The notes under the pieces were generated by a model. It saw only the letters and a list, made by a program, of their open reading frames with translations. It did not search any database and had not been told where the DNA came from. Positions 2,822 through 34,965 of a stretch of DNA of 64,000 nucleotides are shown piece after piece. The translations under genes were made by a program, and so were the position numbers. Origin of the DNA: Nitrospirota bacterium (GTDB lineage Bacteria; Nitrospirota; Nitrospiria; Nitrospirales; Nitrospiraceae); NCBI GenBank assembly GCA_030645475.1, contig JAUSMA010000014.1:1-64000 (forward strand), in the 5' to 3' direction. The stretch's first letter is position 1, and every line of letters begins with the position of its first letter.

Positions 2822-5425
2822 CTATTCCTCCCGCAGCCCGTCCACGAGAGGTTGCCTTGCGGCCCAACGCGCAGGCCAATAGCCTGCTACCAGGGCCGCC
2901 GTAAGAGCGAGTGCGACTGCTTGCAGAATCAGTCCGCCTGGAACCGTCATCTGAATCGTCCAGCCAAAGGACTGCTTATTGATCACGTGGATGAGCAGCA
3001 GCGCGAGCAGCAGGCCTCCCACCACGCCCAGCGCCGCCCCGATCAATCCGAGATAGGCCGCCTCCCACAAAACCAATCGCTCCACCTGCCTCGCGCTGGC
3101 GCCGAGAGCTCGCAAGGTAGCGAACTCACGCCGCCGTTCCAACACGGCTGTCACCAGAGTATTGATGATGCCGAGCACAGCCACTAGCACAGCAATGGCT
3201 TCGAGAACATAGGTGAGCACGAAGGTACGGTCGAAGATATCGAGAATCTCCTTCCTCAACTCGTGGTTCCGGATCACAGACGGTGGAACCGTCACCCCCT
3301 CCATCCCCGAAATCTGCGTGAGAATCGACTGCCTTACTTGATCGACATCGGCCCCGGAAGCCAAATAGATGGGGAATACCGTCACTCGGTCGTCCGGCCA
3401 TTGCTTCTGATACCAGTCTCGATCCATCACCATCTTTCCACCGTCGGTCGCGTAATCGTAGAAGATCCCCTCGATGGGCACATTCACTGGTCCAGCCTGT
3501 GTCGTAACTGAAATCCTGTTCCCCTCGCGAAGACCTAATCGATTGGCCAAGACTTCCGACATGAGCACGCCACCGGTCTCGGCGGCTCGCTGCAAGGCCA
3601 CTGTTGGTTCCCCACGAACCATCAGATATCGGCTGCGCTGTGCATGGAGCCTGAGATCTCGTGAGACCAGCGCAACAGGCCGGCCTTCTACCTCCACATG
3701 CACCTCCCGATAGGTATCGACAGCGGCGATGCCGTCAATCGCCGACAGGGTTGCACGCCAGGCTCCTGGGAGGGCGCGTGACGACTGGCCAGACTGCTTC
3801 CCATGGGGCCAGGATTGCGGGGCGACGATGAGATCGGCCATGACGGTCTCGTTCACCCAGACCTCGACCGTGTCACGAAAGCTGCGCACCATCACGGCCA
3901 CACCGATCATGATCGACAATCCCACCATCAACGCCGACACGGTCACAGCATTCCTTCCAGGGTGGCGAGCAGCCTGGTCTGCCGCAATATGCCGGAGGCT
4001 CCCCCCGAGCGCCATGGGCTTACTCTCTTGGCGAGAGCGCCTCAGGCCCAAGGCCTTGATGCAGAGTGGCGCAAGACAGGAGAGGGCCCCCAAGAGACAG
4101 ACCGTCGAGACATACCCAAAGAGAGGCAGACCTCCGATCGGGCCCATCAGTGAGCAGAGGCCTCCCAGCAACAACAATACGAGGCTCGCCCACCCAAACA
4201 GGCCTGCCCTCAGTTGGTGTGCAGATTCATAGTCTCCTGGCGCCAAGGCACGGACCGTCACAGTTCTACCTGCTTCCACACTGGGACCCAAAGCCCCTAT
4301 CATCGAGACCACGGTTCCAAGCAGCACCCCCTTCGCCACAGCCACGAACGTCAACATGTCCATCGACACAATCGACCCATCGGATGCGACCGGCGCATAG
4401 AGGTCTGAGATGGTCCGGCTCACGAGCGACACCAACCCCCTGGCTAGCCAAACCCCGCCAAGACCTCCCACGAACCCGCCAAGGAGGCCGAGTAACCCTG
4501 CCTCCACGAGGAAGAGGCCTGCGACCCGCCGCTCCGTCATACCGAGCGCCCGATAGATGCCAATCTCGCGCCGCCGTTGCGCCACAGCAAAGGCCATCGT
4601 GTTGTAGATCAAGAACATCCCGACGAGCAGCCCAACCCAGCTCAAGACCGTCAAGTTCAGTTGGAAGGCCTGCACCATATTTTCGAGCTGCTTCGTCCGT
4701 TGAGCCGGCCGTTGCACAACCATATGTGGAGGAAGCACCGTTCGGACAAAGGCCATGACATCGTCGAGCGACTGGCCGGACTGCGTCACCAATTCGATCC
4801 GGTCCAATCGTCCGATCGCTTGGAACAACTGCTGCGCCGCAGCAATATCCATGATGGCTAACCGATCCCAGAGGGAGGAACGCCCCGCCTTGTCGTGAAT
4901 AAGCCCTACGACCCGCAGCCGCACAAGACGCCCCCCCGCCATCACCTCGAGAGTACTGCCGACTCTCAGGTTCCAGTCGGCGGCGATCTGACGGCCAAGA
5001 TACAACACGTCCGGAGCCAGGAGCGTATCCAGCGCCACTTCAGTGTCAGCCTGAGTCAGCTGAAATCCGCGCGTCCCGACCTCCGCAAGAAGATCAAGAC
5101 CCAAGACCTTCAACACATGCCCACGCTGTGCTCCATGGGCAACCACGACCGCTTCGTCAATGACTGGAGCAGCGCTTGCCACCCCCTCGGCCATGCGAAC
5201 TGCCGAGATGACGGATTCATCCAGACCAAGATCACTGCCCACAATTTCCAATGTAGAAGTTCCGGCCACCGTCGTGACGGCCTGTTCAAATGACCGCAGG
5301 ACTTGAACGTTCGCCGTCCCGATGGCCACAGAAGCCAGCACGCCCAGGGCGACTCCAGCGATGCTGAGCAAGGTGCGAAATGGCTGCTGGAGGCCATGGG
5401 AGCGGATCAGAGCGATATTGAACAT
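2822..5425 (-). CDS. FtsX-like ABC transporter permease, two-domain
   Basis: The 867-residue membrane protein carries two FtsX-type permease units. Each has one N-terminal TM helix, a large periplasmic domain and three further TM helices: the first unit covers about residues 1-390 and the second about 470-867. There is a hydrophobic linker pair near 410-455. This is the layout of permeases in lipoprotein or lipid export systems of the LolE/MacB superfamily. No ATPase is adjacent; the LolD-like ATPase at 6808-7524 on the same strand is the natural partner, although pyrD and a divergent regulator lie between. No Shine-Dalgarno is visible before the ATG, and a TTATAC box ends only about five bases upstream, so the mRNA may be leaderless. 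The substrate is unknown. Confidence 0.85.
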   Translation of the reverse strand: MFNIALIRSHGLQQPFRTLLSIAGVALGVLASVAIGTANVQVLRSFEQAVTTVAGTSTLEIVGSDLGLDESVISAVRMAEGVASAAPVIDEAVVVAHGAQRGHVLKVLGLDLLAEVGTRGFQLTQADTEVALDTLLAPDVLYLGRQIAADWNLRVGSTLEVMAGGRLVRLRVVGLIHDKAGRSSLWDRLAIMDIAAAQQLFQAIGRLDRIELVTQSGQSLDDVMAFVRTVLPPHMVVQRPAQRTKQLENMVQAFQLNLTVLSWVGLLVGMFLIYNTMAFAVAQRRREIGIYRALGMTERRVAGLFLVEAGLLGLLGGFVGGLGGVWLARGLVSLVSRTISDLYAPVASDGSIVSMDMLTFVAVAKGVLLGTVVSMIGALGPSVEAGRTVTVRALAPGDYESAHQLRAGLFGWASLVLLLLGGLCSLMGPIGGLPLFGYVSTVCLLGALSCLAPLCIKALGLRRSRQESKPMALGGSLRHIAADQAARHPGRNAVTVSALMVGLSIMIGVAVMVRSFRDTVEVWVNETVMADLIVAPQSWPHGKQSGQSSRALPGAWRATLSAIDGIAAVDTYREVHVEVEGRPVALVSRDLRLHAQRSRYLMVRGEPTVALQRAAETGGVLMSEVLANRLGLREGNRISVTTQAGPVNVPIEGIFYDYATDGGKMVMDRDWYQKQWPDDRVTVFPIYLASGADVDQVRQSILTQISGMEGVTVPPSVIRNHELRKEILDIFDRTFVLTYVLEAIAVLVAVLGIINTLVTAVLERRREFATLRALGASARQVERLVLWEAAYLGLIGAALGVVGGLLLALLLIHVINKQSFGWTIQMTVPGGLILQAVALALTAALVAGYWPARWAARQPLVDGLREE

Positions 5426-27253: not shown

Positions 27254-27259
27254 TCCCTC

Positions 27260-27381
27260 AGGCTGCTGAAAAATCACGCCAGCTTCGCTCTCGCTTCGTT
27301 CAGACCCTCAACGTACCCCTAAGGGTACGCCTCGGGCCTTCACTTGCTGCGGCCTTGCTGGACGGGCTTTTTAAGCAGCCT
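27260..27381 (-). repeat. Dispersed palindromic repeat, copy R4 (inverted orientation)
   Basis: A 122-bp copy in the opposite orientation to the other five, between the convergent genes ygfZ and 27388-27870. Arms AGGCTGC...GCAGCCT, centre GTACCCCTAAGGGTAC. It lies 6 bases after one stop codon and 6 bases before the other, fitting a two-way terminator role. Confidence 0.9.
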
Positions 27382-28244: not shown

Positions 28245-29726
28245 TTACTTGGCCGCTAGATGGTGGGAAAACCTGGTAGTCCCGGCCTCGTCGAGGATCG
28301 TCACGTCGAAGGAGGACTGGGTGACTCGAATGAGGCCGAAATTCATGTACCCGGTTTCGTTGATCAATGTGGTCGGACGTAACTCTTTATTGGGCGGCGT
28401 CTGCCGGCCTGGCGCAGCGGACAAGGGGCCAGCCACAAATTCGTGAAAGTCTGGAATCCCGTCCCCGTTCGGATCGTACGCATTCGCTTGCACATAGTGG
28501 ACATCACCGGCCAGAAATACCACGTTCTTCATCTGTTGTCCGAGAATGGCATCCACGATCACGTGTCGTTCCCGCTCAAACCCTGGACCGCCAGGCCCTC
28601 CGGCCCAGCCATCGTACCCCGAGGCACCTCCGCCTCCGCCTTTCGGAATAGAGAGAGGCACACTGGACACAATCACTTTCCATGTCGCGGTCGACTCGGT
28701 CAGCCCCTTCAGCAACCACTGAAGCTGAGGTGCTCCCAGCATTGTCTTCGCCGGACCGTCCGGGTCAATGTTGCGACTCCGATACTGCCGAGCATCGAGG
28801 ACAAAGAGTTCGAGATCCGCCCCGCCCCGCACCGTGCGATAAAGTCGTTGGGGATCGTCAGGCGCAACAGGGATCGGCCAATACTCGCGCAAGGCCTGAC
28901 GCCCCGGCGGCATCTGGCTATCGAAAGGCCCGGCAAAGTCGTTCCGTACTTCATGATCGTCCCAGATGACAGAGACCGGGACGTTAGCGAGAAACCGCCG
29001 TAACGCCTCTGCACTCCGTTGATCGCGATGACGGGCACGGTACTCGGCCAGGTTCGTCGCTCGAAAATCGGCGCCCGGTTCGTTCGGAGGAGAAGGGCAG
29101 AGATCGTCACCATAAATCGTATCACCGAGAAACAGAAAGAAATCAAGCGGCTGCTTCCGCAACATATCGAAGATCGGATAGCCCGCAACGCCCCGCCGAC
29201 AGAGCCCCTGCCCACCCAAGTCGCCACTCCAGGCAAAGGTCACGGGCGCATGACTCTTCGCATCGGGGAGCGTCGTAAATTCACCTTGTAGCGCCGCATG
29301 CGCCTCCGTCGGCGTCCCCTCGCGCCCCTTGCGGCCGGCAACGACATAGAATCGATACCTGGTGGCCGGCATCAATCCTCCAATGGGAACCGCCAGGGTA
29401 AAATCAGTCTCCTGGCCGGTCGTGAACAGGGGCGAACACGCCACGGGAGCAATAGCAATCGCCATCTTCGACACAAGATCCCAGGCCGCCACCGGCGCCC
29501 ACTCAAATTGCACCGTCATCGGCCCGTCAGTCCGCACCCAGAGCAGGGCCGACCCGCTTGTGACATCCCCCACTGCAATCCCCTGAGGCAAGAGACTCGT
29601 CGCAGCGGTCTCCGCAAAGGGACTCCCAGGAGGAAGCCCCTCACGTGATGCCGACACACAGCTGGGAAGAGAAATAAGCGCGACCAAGAATATGGCGAGG
29701 ATATTCAGCGAGCCAATCATAGCCAT
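28245..29726 (-). CDS. PhoD-like alkaline phosphatase / metallophosphatase
   Basis: The 493-residue protein begins with a hydrophobic signal ending in LPSC (cysteine near residue 23), so it may be a lipoprotein. A fibronectin-like N-terminal domain (about 45-150, with GDVTSGSALLWVRTDGP) is followed by the PhoD catalytic domain. Metal-binding motifs are FLFLGDTIYGDD, IWDDHEVRNDF and VFLAGDVHYVQAN. PhoD enzymes cleave phosphomono- and diesters in the periplasm, with iron and calcium at the site, and help obtain phosphate. No Tat-type twin arginine is visible. The gene seems to be monocistronic. Confidence 0.88.
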   Translation of the reverse strand: MAMIGSLNILAIFLVALISLPSCVSASREGLPPGSPFAETAATSLLPQGIAVGDVTSGSALLWVRTDGPMTVQFEWAPVAAWDLVSKMAIAIAPVACSPLFTTGQETDFTLAVPIGGLMPATRYRFYVVAGRKGREGTPTEAHAALQGEFTTLPDAKSHAPVTFAWSGDLGGQGLCRRGVAGYPIFDMLRKQPLDFFLFLGDTIYGDDLCPSPPNEPGADFRATNLAEYRARHRDQRSAEALRRFLANVPVSVIWDDHEVRNDFAGPFDSQMPPGRQALREYWPIPVAPDDPQRLYRTVRGGADLELFVLDARQYRSRNIDPDGPAKTMLGAPQLQWLLKGLTESTATWKVIVSSVPLSIPKGGGGGASGYDGWAGGPGGPGFERERHVIVDAILGQQMKNVVFLAGDVHYVQANAYDPNGDGIPDFHEFVAGPLSAAPGRQTPPNKELRPTTLINETGYMNFGLIRVTQSSFDVTILDEAGTTRFSHHLAAK

Positions 29727-29885: not shown

Positions 29886-30009
29886 GCAGGATGCTCAAAA
29901 AGGCCGTCAGCAAGGCCGCAGCGAGTGAAGGTCCGAGGCGTACCCGTAGGGTACGTTGAGGGTCTGAACGATGCGAGAACGAAGCTGGCGGGCTTTTTCA
30001 GCATCCTGC
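29886..30009 (+). repeat. Dispersed palindromic repeat, copy R5
   Basis: A 124-bp copy with arms GCAGGATGC...GCATCCTGC and centre GTACCCGTAGGGTAC. Unlike the others it lies between divergent starts (phoD-like gene and 30026-30265), only 16 bases before the next start codon, so here it would be in a leader and not at a gene end. The remaining part of the gap, 29727-29885, shows nothing I can name. Confidence 0.9.
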
Positions 30010-30025
30010 TAAACCGGAGGATGGA

Positions 30026-30265
30026 ATGCACGACCTGACCTGTCTGATTAAGGGCTGCCAAACGAGAGTCTACGCTCCTGCCGGCACGCACAGCATCTGC
30101 CGTGAGCATTTTCTCGCCTACCTCACCTGGCGCCGCCGTAAAGGCCCCCAGATGTTCATGAAGTATGCCGGAATGTCGATGGAAGAACGAGACCCCATCG
30201 TCGCAGAGTGGGCCAACACCATTCGCGTTGAAGAAGTTTCCACCGCCGCAGCACCAAAATCCTAA
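30026..30265 (+). CDS. Small cysteine/histidine protein of unknown function
   Basis: A 79-residue protein that I do not recognise. It has a possible metal site (CLIKGCQ near residue 6 and SICREHF near residue 24), a basic patch TWRRRKG and an acidic and alanine-rich tail. GGAGG precedes the ATG. Parts of this gene recur downstream: its 3' end at 30856-30937 and 31827-31890, and its middle at 31243-31295. The gene thus belongs to a small region of duplication and decay. Repeat R5 lies directly upstream. Confidence 0.6.
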   Translation: MHDLTCLIKGCQTRVYAPAGTHSICREHFLAYLTWRRRKGPQMFMKYAGMSMEERDPIVAEWANTIRVEEVSTAAAPKS

Positions 30266-30363
30266 CACCCGTCGCCAACCAAGCTGGCTAGCCGACATTC
30301 CTCGGCCATGCTACAATACCAACACGAGAAGCAGCGCCCCTCTTGCGAAAGCTGGAGCCGACC

Positions 30364-30594
30364 ATGGCAACAGATACAAGAACGACGGTTTATCTAAAGC
30401 CCAAAGTGTACCGGGCCCTGAAAGCCAAAGCAGCCTCGACGGATCGGACCGTCTCAGATCTGGTCAATGCCGCAGTGCTGGAAGCTATGCGGGAAGACGA
30501 CATCGACCTAGCCGCTGTGACCGCACGACGCAAAGAGCCTTCCCGTCCCTTCGAAAAGGTAATTGAGGACCTGAAACGTGACGGGCTCTTATAG
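30364..30594 (+). CDS. Ribbon-helix-helix antitoxin
   Basis: A 76-residue CopG/RHH-type protein: RTTVYLKPKVYRALKAKAAS is the DNA-binding strand and first helix, and TVSDLVNAAVLEAM is the second helix. The C-terminal 30 residues are charged and would bind the toxin. The ATG at 30364 follows GGAG by eight bases. It overlaps the toxin gene by 17 bases, the usual coupling. A TACAAT box at 30312-30317 may be the -10 of the module. The antitoxin dimer probably represses its own promoter. Confidence 0.85.
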   Translation: MATDTRTTVYLKPKVYRALKAKAASTDRTVSDLVNAAVLEAMREDDIDLAAVTARRKEPSRPFEKVIEDLKRDGLL

Positions 30595-30838
30595 CCTCCT
30601 CTTCAAGAAGTCCGCAGAACGTGATCTGCGGAAAATCCCCAAAGCCGATCTTCAGCGAATCATCCAACGAATCAAGGAACTTGCGGCAACCCCACGGCCT
30701 TCCAACAGCGAGAAACTGGCGGGGCAGGACTCCTATCGTATCCGACAAGGTGATTATCGCGTCGTCTACACCATAGATGATAACCAGAAACTGATCGAGA
30801 TCATCAAGATTGGGCACCGCAGGGAAGTCTATCGCTGA
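30578..30838 (+). CDS. RelE/ParE-family toxin
   Basis: An 86-residue basic protein with the RelE/ParE pattern: LLFKKSAERDLRKIPKADLQ at the start, then KLAGQDSYRIRQGDYRVVYT, and a final strand IIKIGHRREVY. The family cleaves mRNA on the ribosome (RelE) or poisons gyrase (ParE). The arginine-rich core and the ending HRREVYR favour a RelE-type nuclease. Translation starts at GTG inside the antitoxin gene. Right after it comes a copy of the 3' end of the gene at 30026-30265, so the pair sits between two such copies. Confidence 0.88.
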   Translation: MTGSYSLLFKKSAERDLRKIPKADLQRIIQRIKELAATPRPSNSEKLAGQDSYRIRQGDYRVVYTIDDNQKLIEIIKIGHRREVYR

Positions 30839-30855
30839 CACAATCAATACACGTT

Positions 30856-30937
30856 CGTCGCCGAATGGGCCAACACCATCCGTGTCGAAGAAGCCCCCAT
30901 CACCGCCGCAGCACCAAAATTCTAACGCCCGTCGCCG
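30856..30937 (+). repeat. Second copy of the 3' end of gene 30026-30265
   Basis: This stretch encodes VAEWANTIRVEEAPITAAAPKF and a stop, like the end of the gene at 30026-30265, and keeps the bases after the stop (CCCGTCGCC). A 26-base core at 30901-30926 differs by one base from that at 30241-30266. No start codon or upstream gene part is attached. Confidence 0.85.
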
Positions 30938-30986
30938 CCATACCAGAGAACGGTTTCTGCCAACTTATGACTGCATATCCGATGGA

Positions 30987-31223
30987 CTACGCAGCATGGA
31001 GAAGGAATTCAACTTTGATGGCCTCGTAGGGGAACTCGATGTTGCCGGTCTCGGTGCGGTTTAACAGGCCCGCAGACAACAGAGCCGTCACATCACTGTG
31101 AACGGCCTTCACGTCACGTTGAACGCGACGCGCCGACCGTTGGGCCTTCCCGGACCTCCAAGTCTCCACAAACTCACTCATGCCTTCTTCGGGTGAGCGT
31201 ACTTCAAGCGTAACCGTTTTCAT
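30987..31223 (-). pseudogene. HTH regulator (antitoxin-like) with probable internal deletion
   Basis: The 78-residue product begins like a known group of small DNA-binding regulators (MKTVTLEVRSPEEGMSEFVETW) and ends like them (QRDVKAVHSDVTALLSAGLL, then EFPYEAIKVEFLLHAA). Such proteins are normally about 110-130 residues and have a full winged helix between the two parts. Here the middle, including the first helices of the HTH, is missing in frame. It may be inactive or a reduced regulator. The start at 31223 is chosen for the family-like beginning; the frame is open further upstream. Confidence 0.6.
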
Positions 31224-31242
31224 GATTCCACCTCGCAATGTC

Positions 31243-31295
31243 ACGTTGTCTGCCGGGAGCACTTTCTCAACTATCTCACCTGGCGTCGACGACTT
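31243..31295 (+). pseudogene. Fragment of a second copy of gene 30026-30265
   Basis: The frame reads CREHFLNYLTWRRR, nearly the same as CREHFLAYLTWRRR in the intact gene at 30026-30265. DNA identity over about 50 bases is roughly 80 percent by eye. No start or end of a gene is attached; the sequence runs into the leader of the PilZ gene. Confidence 0.75.
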
Positions 31296-31403
31296 CCTAC
31301 AGGCTAGAGTCCGATCTCTGACAGCCGGGACGATCGAAGAATTCGCCAAATACCGTAACCTGCCCCGTTATCCCCTCTTGAATTTGATATACTTTTGCGT
31401 GAC

Positions 31404-31802
31404 ATGCCATCTGATGCACCAATTTCACAGCCATCCCCCAAAGACCGTCGCGCATACTTTCGCATCAACGTCGTCTTGCCCATCAGCATTCAGGCCGAAA
31501 CAGACAGAACAGAGGGTCCGCTCATAGAGAAGACCGTCAACATCAGCGGCGGGGGTATTGGCGTGACCGTGAACGAGGTCTACAAGCCCGGTGAAATTCT
31601 GTCGCTCACGCTGATCCTGCCCGATAAAGTCATCTTCAAAGCCTATGCCGAAGTGCTGCGGCTAGAGCCACTCCCGTATCAGGTCGATACCTACCGCCTA
31701 CATACCCGCTTCGTCAGAATGACCACACAGGACCAGGAATTATTGATCCGACACATCATCCGTTTTCAACGCGACCACCTCGGGAAACACTATTCCGCAT
31801 AA
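31404..31802 (+). CDS. PilZ domain c-di-GMP-binding protein
   Basis: A single PilZ domain of 132 residues. The c-di-GMP-binding motifs are RRAYFR (RxxxR type) near residue 16 and NISGGGIG (D/NxSxxG) near residue 51. PilZ proteins pass a c-di-GMP signal to motility, adhesion or polymer machines through a protein partner. The ATG at 31404 is used; a TTG three codons earlier is possible. The gene lies between two decayed pieces of the gene at 30026-30265, so it seems to have been inserted or kept during rearrangement. Confidence 0.85.
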   Translation: MPSDAPISQPSPKDRRAYFRINVVLPISIQAETDRTEGPLIEKTVNISGGGIGVTVNEVYKPGEILSLTLILPDKVIFKAYAEVLRLEPLPYQVDTYRLHTRFVRMTTQDQELLIRHIIRFQRDHLGKHYSA

Positions 31803-31826
31803 TACGCGCACTGCCCACTTACATTC

Positions 31827-31890
31827 AGACTGGGCCAACCCTATCCGCGGCAAAGAACTCCCCACCGCCGCAGCACCAAAATCCTAACCG
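31827..31890 (+). repeat. Third copy of the 3' end of gene 30026-30265
   Basis: The stretch resembles the end of the gene at 30026-30265, with WANP, then TAAAPKS and the stop. A 26-base core at 31863-31888 is identical to that at 30241-30266. It lies 24 bases after the PilZ gene. Confidence 0.8.
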
Positions 31891-32802: not shown

Positions 32803-32906
32803 GCGAAGGCAGGGTCATTGCTTGACTTTGCACTTGACTGCCTGGCCACCAATAAAATCCACTCATCTCATCTCAGTTTAGCGACAGGCGTTGCAGTAAT
32901 ACCAAG

Positions 32907-33152
32907 TCAAGCGATGACCCGTTGCTTCAGGCGGGCACGGACATTCTCAAAGACACCTTCGCCGGACATTGACTTCACTTTCCCCTCGCGGACTTCGCGA
33001 TAGCGTCTTTGTGCCTCAACTAACCAAACACGCTCGACATCGGCATCAGCCTGGCCATCGAGCTCTTCGATCAAAACCCGCAGCAACTCGGTTTTATCTT
33101 CGAAACTCAGAGACCGAATCTTCTCTTCAATCTCAACAAAACCAGGTGACAT
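32907..33152 (-). CDS. Addiction module component (TIGR02574-like), no partner visible
   Basis: An 81-residue acidic protein of the putative addiction module component family: IEEKIRSLSFEDKTELLRVL, then VWLVEAQRRYREVREGKV. These are antitoxins, normally followed by a RelE/ParE toxin gene. No toxin lies in the 104 bases between it and mrr, so it is an orphan or remnant. The ATG at 33152 follows GGAGG by seven bases; the longer open frame upstream is not needed. Confidence 0.75.
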   Translation of the reverse strand: MSPGFVEIEEKIRSLSFEDKTELLRVLIEELDGQADADVERVWLVEAQRRYREVREGKVKSMSGEGVFENVRARLKQRVIA

Positions 33153-33249
33153 GACAACCTCCGTACTGCCCGCTACTTGGCCCGTCGAACGATCCCTTCT
33201 CTTCCCCCCACCCTTAAACAATGGGCTGAGGCGGTTCTTGCTCTCGACG

Positions 33250-33390
33250 TGCGCCCGTCCAACGAGGGCCTTCTCATGCCGCGCGTTGCGCAGTCTTTCC
33301 CCTACTCTCCCAAGGTCATGGGCTGATTGGTTCCCCCACTGCGCCCGTCGAACGAGCACATTCTGATCGTGCGCGTTCCGGGAGCACAGG
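33250..33390 (+). repeat. Two diverged direct repeats, 90-bp spacing
   Basis: The block TGCGCCCGTC-x-AACGAG followed by TTCT and then GCGCGTT occurs at 33250 and again at 33340. The segments are similar, not identical. They lie in the 245-base gap between an orphan antitoxin gene and a SnoaL-like gene. Confidence 0.6.
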
Positions 33391-33410
33391 GGAACCATTA
33401 GCCCATGACC
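33314..33410. repeat. Inverted repeat around the second direct repeat
   Basis: The left arm 33314-33336 (GGTCATGGGCTGATTGGTTC...) and right arm 33389-33410 are reverse complements except for one mismatch and one indel. They enclose 52 bases. The right arm overlaps the end of the SnoaL-like gene, so this may be its terminator, or the ends of a small mobile element. Confidence 0.65.
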
Positions 33411-33790
33411 GCACTCCCATGATGATGTATCAGCAACCACTCATCCCCGATCCGTTCGAAGAGATTCGTGGCTAAGACCTGCGCCTGCTGGGGTTCGTCG
33501 GATTGATGGGTGGTGATGTGCTCCACGCAGACGACCCAGGCCATATCGCCCGCCACCTGCACCATCACGTCGGTAAGTTCGAAGGTCATCGAGAAGGTAT
33601 TATTGAAGATCAAGACCCAGGAGTCACGGACTGCCGGCCAGTCCGACCGCAACGACCAACCGGGGTGGACACAGGTGACATATTCCTGATGCGCCCAGAC
33701 CTTGTCCATCTCGGCGATGTCGAGATTGCCGAACGCGGCATAGAAGGCATGGTTCGCTTTGTTCACTTCCTCGATACGTTGCTCCAGCAT
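33398..33790 (-). CDS. SnoaL/NTF2-like protein
   Basis: A 130-residue protein of the NTF2-like cone fold. An N-terminal helix (NKANHAFYAAFGNLDIAEMD) is followed by VWAHQEYVTCVHPGW and strands such as MAWVVCVEHITTH. Similar proteins are annotated as SnoaL-like or nuclear transport factor 2 family. They bind small hydrophobic ligands or act as enzymes; the substrate cannot be told here. The histidine-rich end (LLIHHHGSA) is typical. The gene stands alone. Confidence 0.8.
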   Translation of the reverse strand: MLEQRIEEVNKANHAFYAAFGNLDIAEMDKVWAHQEYVTCVHPGWSLRSDWPAVRDSWVLIFNNTFSMTFELTDVMVQVAGDMAWVVCVEHITTHQSDEPQQAQVLATNLFERIGDEWLLIHHHGSAVMG

Positions 33791-33940
33791 GCAGGGCTCC
33801 TTCGCTGAAAAATGAGCCGTATCATACTGTAATCCTGGAGAGAAGGGCGAGAGGCTAGGGGCCAGAGGCGGATGGAAGCCATGATCCCGTGCCTCTAGAC
33901 TGCAGGGACCAGCGATTGAAGCTGAACAATCGATCTTGCA

Positions 33941-34060
33941 GGCTGCTCAAAAAGGCCGTCCAGCAAGGCCGCAGCGAGCGAAGGCCCGAGGCGTACCCTT
34001 TAGGGTACGTTGAGGGCCTGAACGATGCGAGAACGAAGCTGGCGGGCTTTTTCAGCAGCC
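33941..34060 (+). repeat. Dispersed palindromic repeat, copy R6
   Basis: A 120-bp copy with arms GGCTGC...GCAGCC, an inner pair AGGCCC with GGGCCT and centre GTACCCTTTAGGGTAC. Its right end is 2 bases from the stop of the DMT transporter gene. The left flank 33791-33940 is the upstream region of the SnoaL-like gene and shows nothing else. Confidence 0.9.
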
Positions 34061-34062
34061 GA

Positions 34063-34965
34063 CTAAATGGTGAGACGGGAGGTTTGCCGATCCACGACCC
34101 ACACCCCTGCCAAAATCAGCGCGATGCCGAGGATTTCATTCGTACCCACTGATTCTTTCAACAGCAATGCAGACAGCACGATGGCGGCCACAGGGGTCAG
34201 ATTGCCCAGGACGGAAGCGCGCGAAGGCCCGATGCCCTTCACGCCGAACAGCCAGGCCTGTTGTGCGATGGCCGTGGCGAACAGGACCAGATAGCCCAGC
34301 GCCATCCAATCCGCCTCTGTCACGGACCCAAGTCCTGCCTCCAGCATCTTGCGGTCCGTCCACAAGAGAGGAATTTGGAGAACGGTGGCGACGAGGAGTG
34401 TTGTCCAATTGACGGTAAGGGCCGAGTGGCGCTCCATAAGCTGGCGGCTGCCGATACTATAGAGGGCCCAGCTCACCACACCGAGGAAGACCAGCAGGCT
34501 GCCGAGCAGCGGCTGATCGCCCGCGGCCTGGAACCCTGCCACAGAGACCAACCCCACCCCCGCAAAGGATAAGAGACCGCCAGCCCAGACGGCTCGTAGC
34601 GGAACATCCTGAATCAACAAAGCCGAGAGCAACGATGTCACCACCGGACTCGATCCGATGATCACCCCACCCACAGCCCCGCTCACATAGTTGAGCCCCA
34701 TGAGAATGAAGAGGTGGTTGCCCAACACACCGAGTCCGAGCAATCCCAACAGGCGCAGATCCGCCTTGGTCATCTTGGCCAGGGTCCCTTCCTGCCACCA
34801 CCAAGTGGTCAGGAGAATGGCCAGGCCACCGATGTCGCGCAGGACCGAGGCCTCGACGGCGGAGAACGACCCGAGGGCCATCTTCTGTGCCACAATCGAG
34901 CCGCCCCAGAGGGCCGCAGCGAGCAGAACCGATCCATAGGCGAGACTGGTGGAGGGAGATGCCAT
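34063..34965 (-). CDS. EamA/DMT family transporter
   Basis: A 300-residue inner-membrane protein with ten hydrophobic helices formed by two EamA repeats (about residues 8-140 and 155-292). The second repeat ends with LGIALILAGVWVVDRQ, typical of the drug/metabolite transporter superfamily. Members export amino acids, metabolites or toxic compounds; the substrate is unknown. The gene is monocistronic and ends next to repeat R6. Confidence 0.88.
   Translation of the reverse strand: MASPSTSLAYGSVLLAAALWGGSIVAQKMALGSFSAVEASVLRDIGGLAILLTTWWWQEGTLAKMTKADLRLLGLLGLGVLGNHLFILMGLNYVSGAVGGVIIGSSPVVTSLLSALLIQDVPLRAVWAGGLLSFAGVGLVSVAGFQAAGDQPLLGSLLVFLGVVSWALYSIGSRQLMERHSALTVNWTTLLVATVLQIPLLWTDRKMLEAGLGSVTEADWMALGYLVLFATAIAQQAWLFGVKGIGPSRASVLGNLTPVAAIVLSALLLKESVGTNEILGIALILAGVWVVDRQTSRLTI

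What the first reader, a model, noticed from the sequence alone, without database searches (positions are those of the whole stretch)
30199..31890. Small islet where the 3' end of one gene is repeated three times around cargo genes
The end of gene 30026-30265 recurs at 30856-30937 and 31827-31890 with a 26-base core (30241, 30901 and 31863) that is identical in the first and third copies. Between the copies lie a toxin-antitoxin pair, a truncated HTH regulator, a fragment of the same gene (31243-31295) and a PilZ gene. This looks like repeated insertion at the 3' end of a gene with duplication of the target, or tandem duplication followed by replacement. No integrase is present, so a helper in trans or homologous recombination must be assumed.
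Basis: partly seen in the sequence, partly recalled or inferred. Interest (0 to 1): 0.6.

Follow-up and report, generated by a model that had tools for sequence, protein, structure and literature searches.

The report
Integrase-free gene cassette array in Nitrospira
In Nitrospira bacteria, small genes such as toxin-antitoxin pairs pile up and change places behind one short conserved gene, each separated from the next by a leftover piece of that gene's end, which looks like a cassette system run by ordinary DNA recombination rather than by a dedicated enzyme.

Summary
The 3' end of a 79-aa gene (called Z here, 30026-30265) recurs at about 30855-30936 and 31826-31888, nowhere else in the genome, around a RHH/ParE pair, a truncated HVO_A0114 regulator, a Z fragment and a PilZ gene. 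Relatives show a variable-content hotspot: Z and a downstream SnoaL gene are conserved neighbours across the family, 3 bp to 24 kb apart in 117 genomes. Within the genus, about 15 genomes carry Z remnants between cargo modules. Modules recur in different orders but never inverted; each keeps its own downstream Z remnant with a characteristic 5' edge, and several sit behind different upstream modules through the same Z-end junction. In the best-resolved case the remnant behind the toxin-antitoxin pair matches the intact Z end of a relative lacking the pair. No integrase, attC-like fold or precise core was found. Best model: Z acts as a homology anchor. New DNA arrives with a Z copy, joins illegitimately inside the resident Z and displaces its 3' end; the remnants then allow recombination-driven transfer and shuffling. 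This resembles the Vibrio T6SS immunity-array model and integrase-less hotspots, with different anchor and cargo. The mechanism is inferred, not demonstrated.

The parts
28245..29726 (-). PhoD-like phosphatase; conserved left flank of the hotspot
   Evidence: Pfam PF09423 5e-57; same cluster found in 24 loci
29886..30009 (.). 124-bp palindromic high-copy repeat just upstream of Z
   Evidence: 26-nt arms 88% complementary; at least 40 copies at 87-96% in own genome; same place in L066, L067, L068, L071, L075
30026..30265 (+). Z: intact 79-aa conserved protein with Cys/His residues, no Pfam/NCBIfam hit; anchor gene
   Evidence: found in 152 of 175 family genomes
30364..30594 (+). RHH antitoxin-like gene (module T)
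   Evidence: RHH_5 2.7e-5, below the gathering score
30578..30838 (+). ParE-family toxin (module T)
   Evidence: PF05016 1.5e-15
30855..30978 (+). Z remnant 2: Z 3' end plus about 50 bp downstream segment F
30987..31222 (-). HVO_A0114-family regulator with internal deletion (module H)
   Evidence: PF25212 7.5e-10; matches intact homologue 1-147 and 254-348 of 348 nt
31248..31291 (+). internal Z fragment (q70-113), remnant of a Z copy between modules H and P
31297..31345 (+). segment D, the sequence that precedes PilZ in relatives
   Evidence: junction alignment
31404..31802 (+). PilZ-domain gene (module P), single copy in genome
   Evidence: PF07238 6.7e-14
31826..31888 (+). Z remnant 3 (q179-241), ends just after the stop codon
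31921..32802 (-). Mrr-type (type IV) restriction endonuclease, cargo downstream of last remnant
   Evidence: PF04471 3e-36; PADLOC mREase_IV 6.6e-84
32907..33440 (-). ORF holding an addiction-module antitoxin-like domain (true start probably internal), recurrent cargo next to SnoaL
   Evidence: PF09720 3.8e-10
33398..33790 (-). SnoaL-like protein (c10); conserved right flank of the hotspot
   Evidence: PF13474 2e-30; 149 of 175 family genomes

Best explanation
Shown: this is a variable-content hotspot behind gene Z in Nitrospira, where cargo modules alternate with remnants of Z's 3' end and are re-ordered between species without inversion. Inferred: Z is a homology anchor. Incoming DNA from a related Nitrospira, carrying a complete Z plus a downstream cargo gene, recombines by homology at the Z 5' side (or PhoD-Z), while its other end joins illegitimately inside the resident Z. 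The resident Z loses a variable 5' part and its 3' end with downstream sequence is displaced behind the new cargo. The cell keeps an intact Z in front, and cargo is now flanked on both sides by Z homology, so it can later be excised, shuffled or transferred by ordinary RecA-type recombination at any Z copy. Toxin-antitoxin and defence genes may accumulate because they are selfishly or selectively retained.
For: Asymmetry: by my count over the table (leaving out the MITE-split copies, a local duplicate in L081 and a copy at the contig end of L084), 24 of 26 non-first Z copies retain the stop codon and 20 of 26 the 50 bp after it, while 20 of 26 lack more than 60 nt of the 5' part; 5' edges are module-specific (PilZ q177-189, ParDE q143-165, VCPO q102-106, c87 q203-208, BrnTA q12-17, GFA q6). 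Polarity: the remnant behind the toxin-antitoxin module in L066 matches the intact Z end of L067, a relative without that module (score 166, 90%), better than its own Z (106, 85%); the window's remnant likewise prefers L066's remnant (131) and L067 Z (126) over its own Z (95). Same junction behind different neighbours: H follows the ParDE remnant, Z itself, the PilZ remnant or c87; M follows the BrnTA remnant (L086) or the VCPO remnant (L087, L088) with the same linked variant of F; K follows Z (L086) or a GFA-linked remnant (L097); VCPO follows Z or the PilZ remnant. Order conflicts (H/P, P/GFA, c87/H, M/ABC) with constant orientation. No tyrosine recombinase in the hotspots.
Against: No closely related pair differing by exactly one module was available, so breakpoints are not at base resolution, and a donor has not been seen. 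Shared T-remnant and P-remnant junctions mean few independent founding events. Natural competence in this genus was not tested. In other genera the same hotspot varies without Z remnants, so remnants are not needed for gene turnover. The relatives are mostly MAGs.
Confidence: 0.58

Rival explanations
1. Tandem duplication of Z (or Z plus neighbour), followed by decay and chance insertion of selfish genes between and into the copies.
For: Some copies are nearly complete (q6-17 to about 290); a MITE-like insert in a Z copy of L078/L098 shows ordinary decay; L123 (another genus) has a local partial Z duplication; PilZ has Z-F-D sequence on both sides in L068.
Against: No cargo module is seen twice in one array, 3' ends are kept far more often than 5' ends, and almost all remnants are closest to a Z copy of another genome rather than their own. 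Module order changes while orientation and junctions are kept.
Confidence: 0.2
2. Site-specific integration at the 3' end of Z by an integrase acting in trans; remnants are attachment-site copies, as in accreted cis-mobilizable elements.
For: Right edges of remnants are fairly constant; a shared 26-nt end of Z is present in all three window copies; cargo has constant orientation; the own genome has tyrosine recombinases elsewhere.
Against: Left edges range over q6-208; cargo starts anywhere from the stop codon to about 130 bp beyond; no tyrosine recombinase in the hotspot ORFs surveyed, including 24-kb insertions of other genera; the repeat does not fold better than shuffles; no copies found on plasmids, phages or viral contigs.
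Confidence: 0.1
3. Plain integrase-less hotspot with exchange of whole regions by double crossover in the flanking core genes (PhoD/Z and SnoaL/EamA); Z remnants are incidental scars with no role in mobility.
For: The hotspot exists across the family without Z remnants; such hotspots are common (PMC5635113).
Against: Does not explain why remnants separate successive modules, nor the same cargo-Z junction behind different neighbours and internal re-ordering.
Confidence: 0.12

Closest known systems
Type VI secretion immunity-gene arrays of Vibrio cholerae (Kirchberger et al. 2017, PMC5361080)
   Same: Incoming module displaces the resident gene, whose 3' end is shifted back behind the new module; arrays of heterologous genes form; homologous plus homology-facilitated illegitimate recombination is the proposed mechanism; no specific integration site.
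   Different: There the anchor is an effector gene and the cargo are immunity genes. Here the anchor is a small conserved gene without known function that stays intact in front, and the cargo is unrelated (toxin-antitoxin, PilZ, enzymes).
Integrase-less horizontal-transfer hotspots (Oliveira et al. 2017, PMC5635113)
   Same: Variable genes between conserved flanking genes, without recognisable integrase; recombination at flanking genes proposed.
   Different: Here the flanking gene leaves its 3' end between modules, so modules are individually separated and shuffled.
Integron cassette arrays
   Same: Single-gene modules with a common sequence at their 3' side, constant orientation, re-ordering, toxin-antitoxin cargo.
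   Different: No IntI over cut-off in the genome, repeat is not a folded attC, left edges are not fixed.
Accreted cis-mobilizable elements (CIMEs) at gene 3' ends
   Same: Direct repeats of a gene 3' end flank cargo that lacks its own integrase.
   Different: No precise att core, no related integrase-bearing element found at this site.

Membership tests
Integron | IntI integrase in the genome | tested here: not met
   TIGR02249: 0 matches over cut-off in own genome; only general tyrosine-recombinase signal
Integron | attC sites that fold as hairpins on one strand | tested here: not met
   DNA fold z-scores +1.5 and +1.2 for the two strands, i.e. weaker than shuffles; no covarying stem
Accreted CIME/IME at a gene 3' end | precise common att core shared by all repeats | tested here: not met
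   5' edges q6 to q208, 3' edges about q241 to about q295
Accreted CIME/IME at a gene 3' end | related integrase-bearing element at the same site | tested here: inconclusive
   no tyrosine recombinase in ORFs of 58 fetched loci plus the window, apart from a 147-aa fragment 5 kb upstream of Z in L099; serine recombinases not tested systematically
Integrase-less hotspot | variable content between conserved flanks | tested here: met
   Z-SnoaL distance 3 bp to 24,149 bp in 117 genomes; different cargo
Integrase-less hotspot | raised homologous recombination in flanking core genes | not tested
   no population-level genome set at hand
Displacement arrays of the T6SS type | 3' remnants of the anchor gene between successive modules | tested here: met
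Displacement arrays of the T6SS type | anchor is a toxin/effector gene and cargo its immunity genes | tested here: not met
   Z has no family hit; cargo families are unrelated

The most novel reading that the evidence does not exclude
The Z gene end serves as a dedicated recombination site for an unknown recombinase acting in trans, making this a cassette-capture system unrelated to integrons.
Probability: 0.07. Interest if true: 0.85.

Novelty: new variant of a known kind. Interest (0 to 1): 0.52.

Why it matters
It shows how single genes, including toxin-antitoxin and defence genes, could be stacked, moved and re-ordered like integron cassettes without any integrase, using leftovers of an ordinary conserved gene as homology. 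Many hotspots lack mobility genes and the route of gene entry is open; this locus gives a testable case with visible scars, in a bacterial group central to nitrification.

Tried and rejected
Integron attC: no IntI over cut-off, no hairpin. Mobile vehicle: no Z relative in viral contigs, no match to the Z end in plasmids or phages. Large insertions of other genera were read in part in search of an integrase and a distal Z copy; none found. MITE as mover: the 188-bp inverted-repeat element inserted in Z at q102 explains one split copy in L078/L098 but not the array. Copies of the core next to other genes in the genome: none. PADLOC named only Mrr and the Gabija pair, and NCBIfam gave nothing for Z.

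Full report
OBSERVATION. The 26-mers at 30241 and 31863 are identical and the one at 30901 differs by one base. The ungapped homology is 63 nt and no other place in the 3.7-Mb genome matches at E below 0.1. Between the copies are a RHH/ParE pair, an HVO_A0114-family regulator lacking about 100 bp of its middle, a Z fragment (q70-113) and a PilZ gene; beyond the last copy is an Mrr-type nuclease. Here 'q' is the position in Z, counted from its start codon; remnant edges come from local alignments and are good to roughly 10 nt.

HOST AND CONSERVED FRAME. Close hits are Nitrospira MAGs (N. lenta, CG24, RSF and others). Z (79 aa, no Pfam or NCBIfam family) is present in 152 of 175 genomes of the family. 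The order 160-aa protein, 83-aa protein, PhoD, Z, SnoaL (c10), EamA-like transporter (my reading of c16; not scanned) is widely conserved. In 117 genomes with Z and SnoaL on one contig the gap ranges from 3 bp to 24,149 bp, with 43 genomes below 600 bp (the pairs were transcribed from the tables). So the site is a hotspot with many nearly empty states. The large gaps in other genera hold, for example, what look like type I secretion genes and lipase-like repeats, without Z remnants.

REMNANTS IN THE GENUS. A profile of Z plus its downstream sequence finds extra Z copies in about 15 genus genomes. By my count over that table, leaving out copies split by a MITE, a local duplicate in L081 and one at the contig end of L084, 24 of 26 non-first copies keep the stop codon and 20 of 26 also keep about 50 bp downstream (segment F, consensus GTTCCACGCCATCACACAAGAAAACGGTTCCTGCC...), while 20 of 26 have lost more than 60 nt of the 5' part. 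Fragments of the 5' part alone are rare. These copies are not independent, since several junctions are shared by descent or transfer.

MODULES. Probe mapping gives these arrays downstream of Z. Window: ParDE, HVO_A0114, PilZ. L066: the RHH gene with a ParE stump plus another toxin-antitoxin pair, HVO_A0114, PilZ. L067, L068, L073: PilZ. L069, L077: ParDE. L078: PilZ, GFA-like. L098: HigBA-like, GFA-like, PilZ, HVO_A0114. L080: HVO_A0114, BrnTA. L084: c87, BrnTA. L086: AbiU2-like (K), ABC, BrnTA, M. L087: VCPO-like, M, HVO_A0114. L088: PilZ, VCPO-like, M, ABC, HVO_A0114. L090: PilZ, c87, HVO_A0114. L092: PilZ, HVO_A0114, c87. L097: GFA-like, K. Family names come from Pfam for the proteins scanned: ParE, HVO_A0114, PilZ, BrnT (below cut-off), Gp49/HI1420-type pair, VCPO, HEPN_AbiU2. 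'GFA-like', 'ABC' and 'lipoprotein' (c87) are my reading of the translations and were not scanned. L067 also carries a GajA/GajB (Gabija) pair.

SHUFFLING. Four pairs of modules occur in both orders: H/P, P/GFA, c87/H, M/ABC. No module is inverted relative to Z in any locus. The same cargo with the same left junction occurs behind different upstream modules, joined through the Z end and F: M behind a BrnTA-linked Z copy in L086 but behind a VCPO-linked one in L087 and L088, with a linked F variant (CAGCTCATTAAG, one base different in L087) in all three; K directly behind Z in L086 but behind a GFA-linked remnant in L097; VCPO behind Z in L087 but behind the PilZ remnant in L088; H behind the ParDE remnant, Z, the PilZ remnant or c87. 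Exchange therefore most likely happened within the Z-end repeats.

POLARITY. The window, L066, L067 and L068 are relatives (PhoD 92.4, 91.8 and 87.5% to the window). The window and L066 have the ParD(E) module, L067 and L068 do not. The remnant behind the module in L066 is closest to the intact Z end of L067 (score 166, 90%) and not to L066's own Z (106, 85%); the window's remnant prefers L066's remnant (131), L067 Z (126) and L068 Z (118) over its own Z (95). This is what displacement of the resident Z end by an incoming Z-plus-module predicts. It is one event seen in two genomes, and the scores rest on about 110 nt; part of the difference comes from the segment after the stop codon, which the module has replaced behind the first Z.

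ANCESTRAL FLANK. In other genera (L100-L102) the sequence downstream of Z leads to, or is close to, the gene c87. This flank is retained in L084, L090 and L092, while most genus members have F instead. F is thus probably derived within the genus.

MECHANISM. The proposed path is (i) homology-anchored arrival of a complete Z with cargo, (ii) illegitimate joining inside the resident Z, leaving a 5'-truncated remnant, and (iii) later recombination between Z copies. Steps (i) and (ii) are inferred from remnant asymmetry and polarity, step (iii) from re-ordering with conserved orientation. The same kind of displacement, with homology-facilitated illegitimate recombination, was proposed for V. cholerae T6SS immunity arrays, and that paper notes the likeness to integron cassette addition (PMC5361080). 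Hotspots lacking integrases are common and were linked to recombination at flanking core genes (PMC5635113).

ALTERNATIVES TESTED. Integron: no IntI over cut-off, no attC-like fold. Integrase-driven accretion: variable edges, no tyrosine recombinase among the hotspot ORFs when three recombinases of the own genome are used as queries; the only hit is a 147-aa fragment 5 kb upstream of Z in L099. Serine recombinases were not searched systematically. Vehicles: no Z relative in viral contigs and no Z-end match in plasmids or phages. Tandem duplication: possible as a contributor, because nearly full copies exist, but it predicts duplicated cargo and closest match to the own Z; the clear case of the latter is a 100% copy in L084 that lies at a contig end.

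LIMITS. Most relatives are MAGs; arrays lie on single contigs but some are near contig ends (L084, L087, L092, L098). The counts of remnants and order conflicts are small, and no statistical model of rearrangement was fitted. The literature searches covered open-access text only, so a prior description of this locus could have been missed.

Noticed in passing
window 29886-30009 and 33938-34060 (also 27259-27381, minus): The same 124-bp palindromic repeat, at least 40 copies (87-96%) in the genome, stands just upstream of Z and just downstream of SnoaL in the same orientation (93% identical), bracketing the whole hotspot. L068 also has one just upstream of Z and one about 4 kb downstream.
   Followed up: partly
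window 32812-32920; L078 about 3490-3600; L098 about 4780-4880 (re-oriented): A 109-bp element with 17-nt terminal inverted repeats, single copy in this genome, recurs in L078 and L098 immediately left of the GFA-linked Z copy.
   Followed up: partly
L078 1783-1970, L098 2631-2818 (loci as re-oriented): 188-bp element with imperfect terminal inverted repeats (AGCCCGCATTA / TAATGTGGGCT) inserted in Z at q102; a remnant-like end is visible next to the Z copy in L087.
   Followed up: partly
L089/L090 (G136), also G141, G142, G150: Z with PhoD and the SnoaL side of the array are separated, 276 kb apart on opposite strands of one contig in G136, which suggests an inversion with a breakpoint in the array.
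   Followed up: no
L077 and L078 (G154), L098 (G156): G154 has two Z arrays on different contigs, one beside PhoD-side genes and one beside an unrelated gene (c206) shared with G156; either a second array locus or MAG contamination.
   Followed up: no
window 34514-34594: ARAGORN calls a tRNA-Ala inside and on the same strand as the EamA-like transporter gene (34063-34965); probably a false positive.
   Followed up: no
L067 10858-13540: Gabija-type defence pair (GajA 2.7e-200, GajB 1.3e-123) in the hotspot of a close relative, beyond the PilZ remnant.
   Followed up: partly
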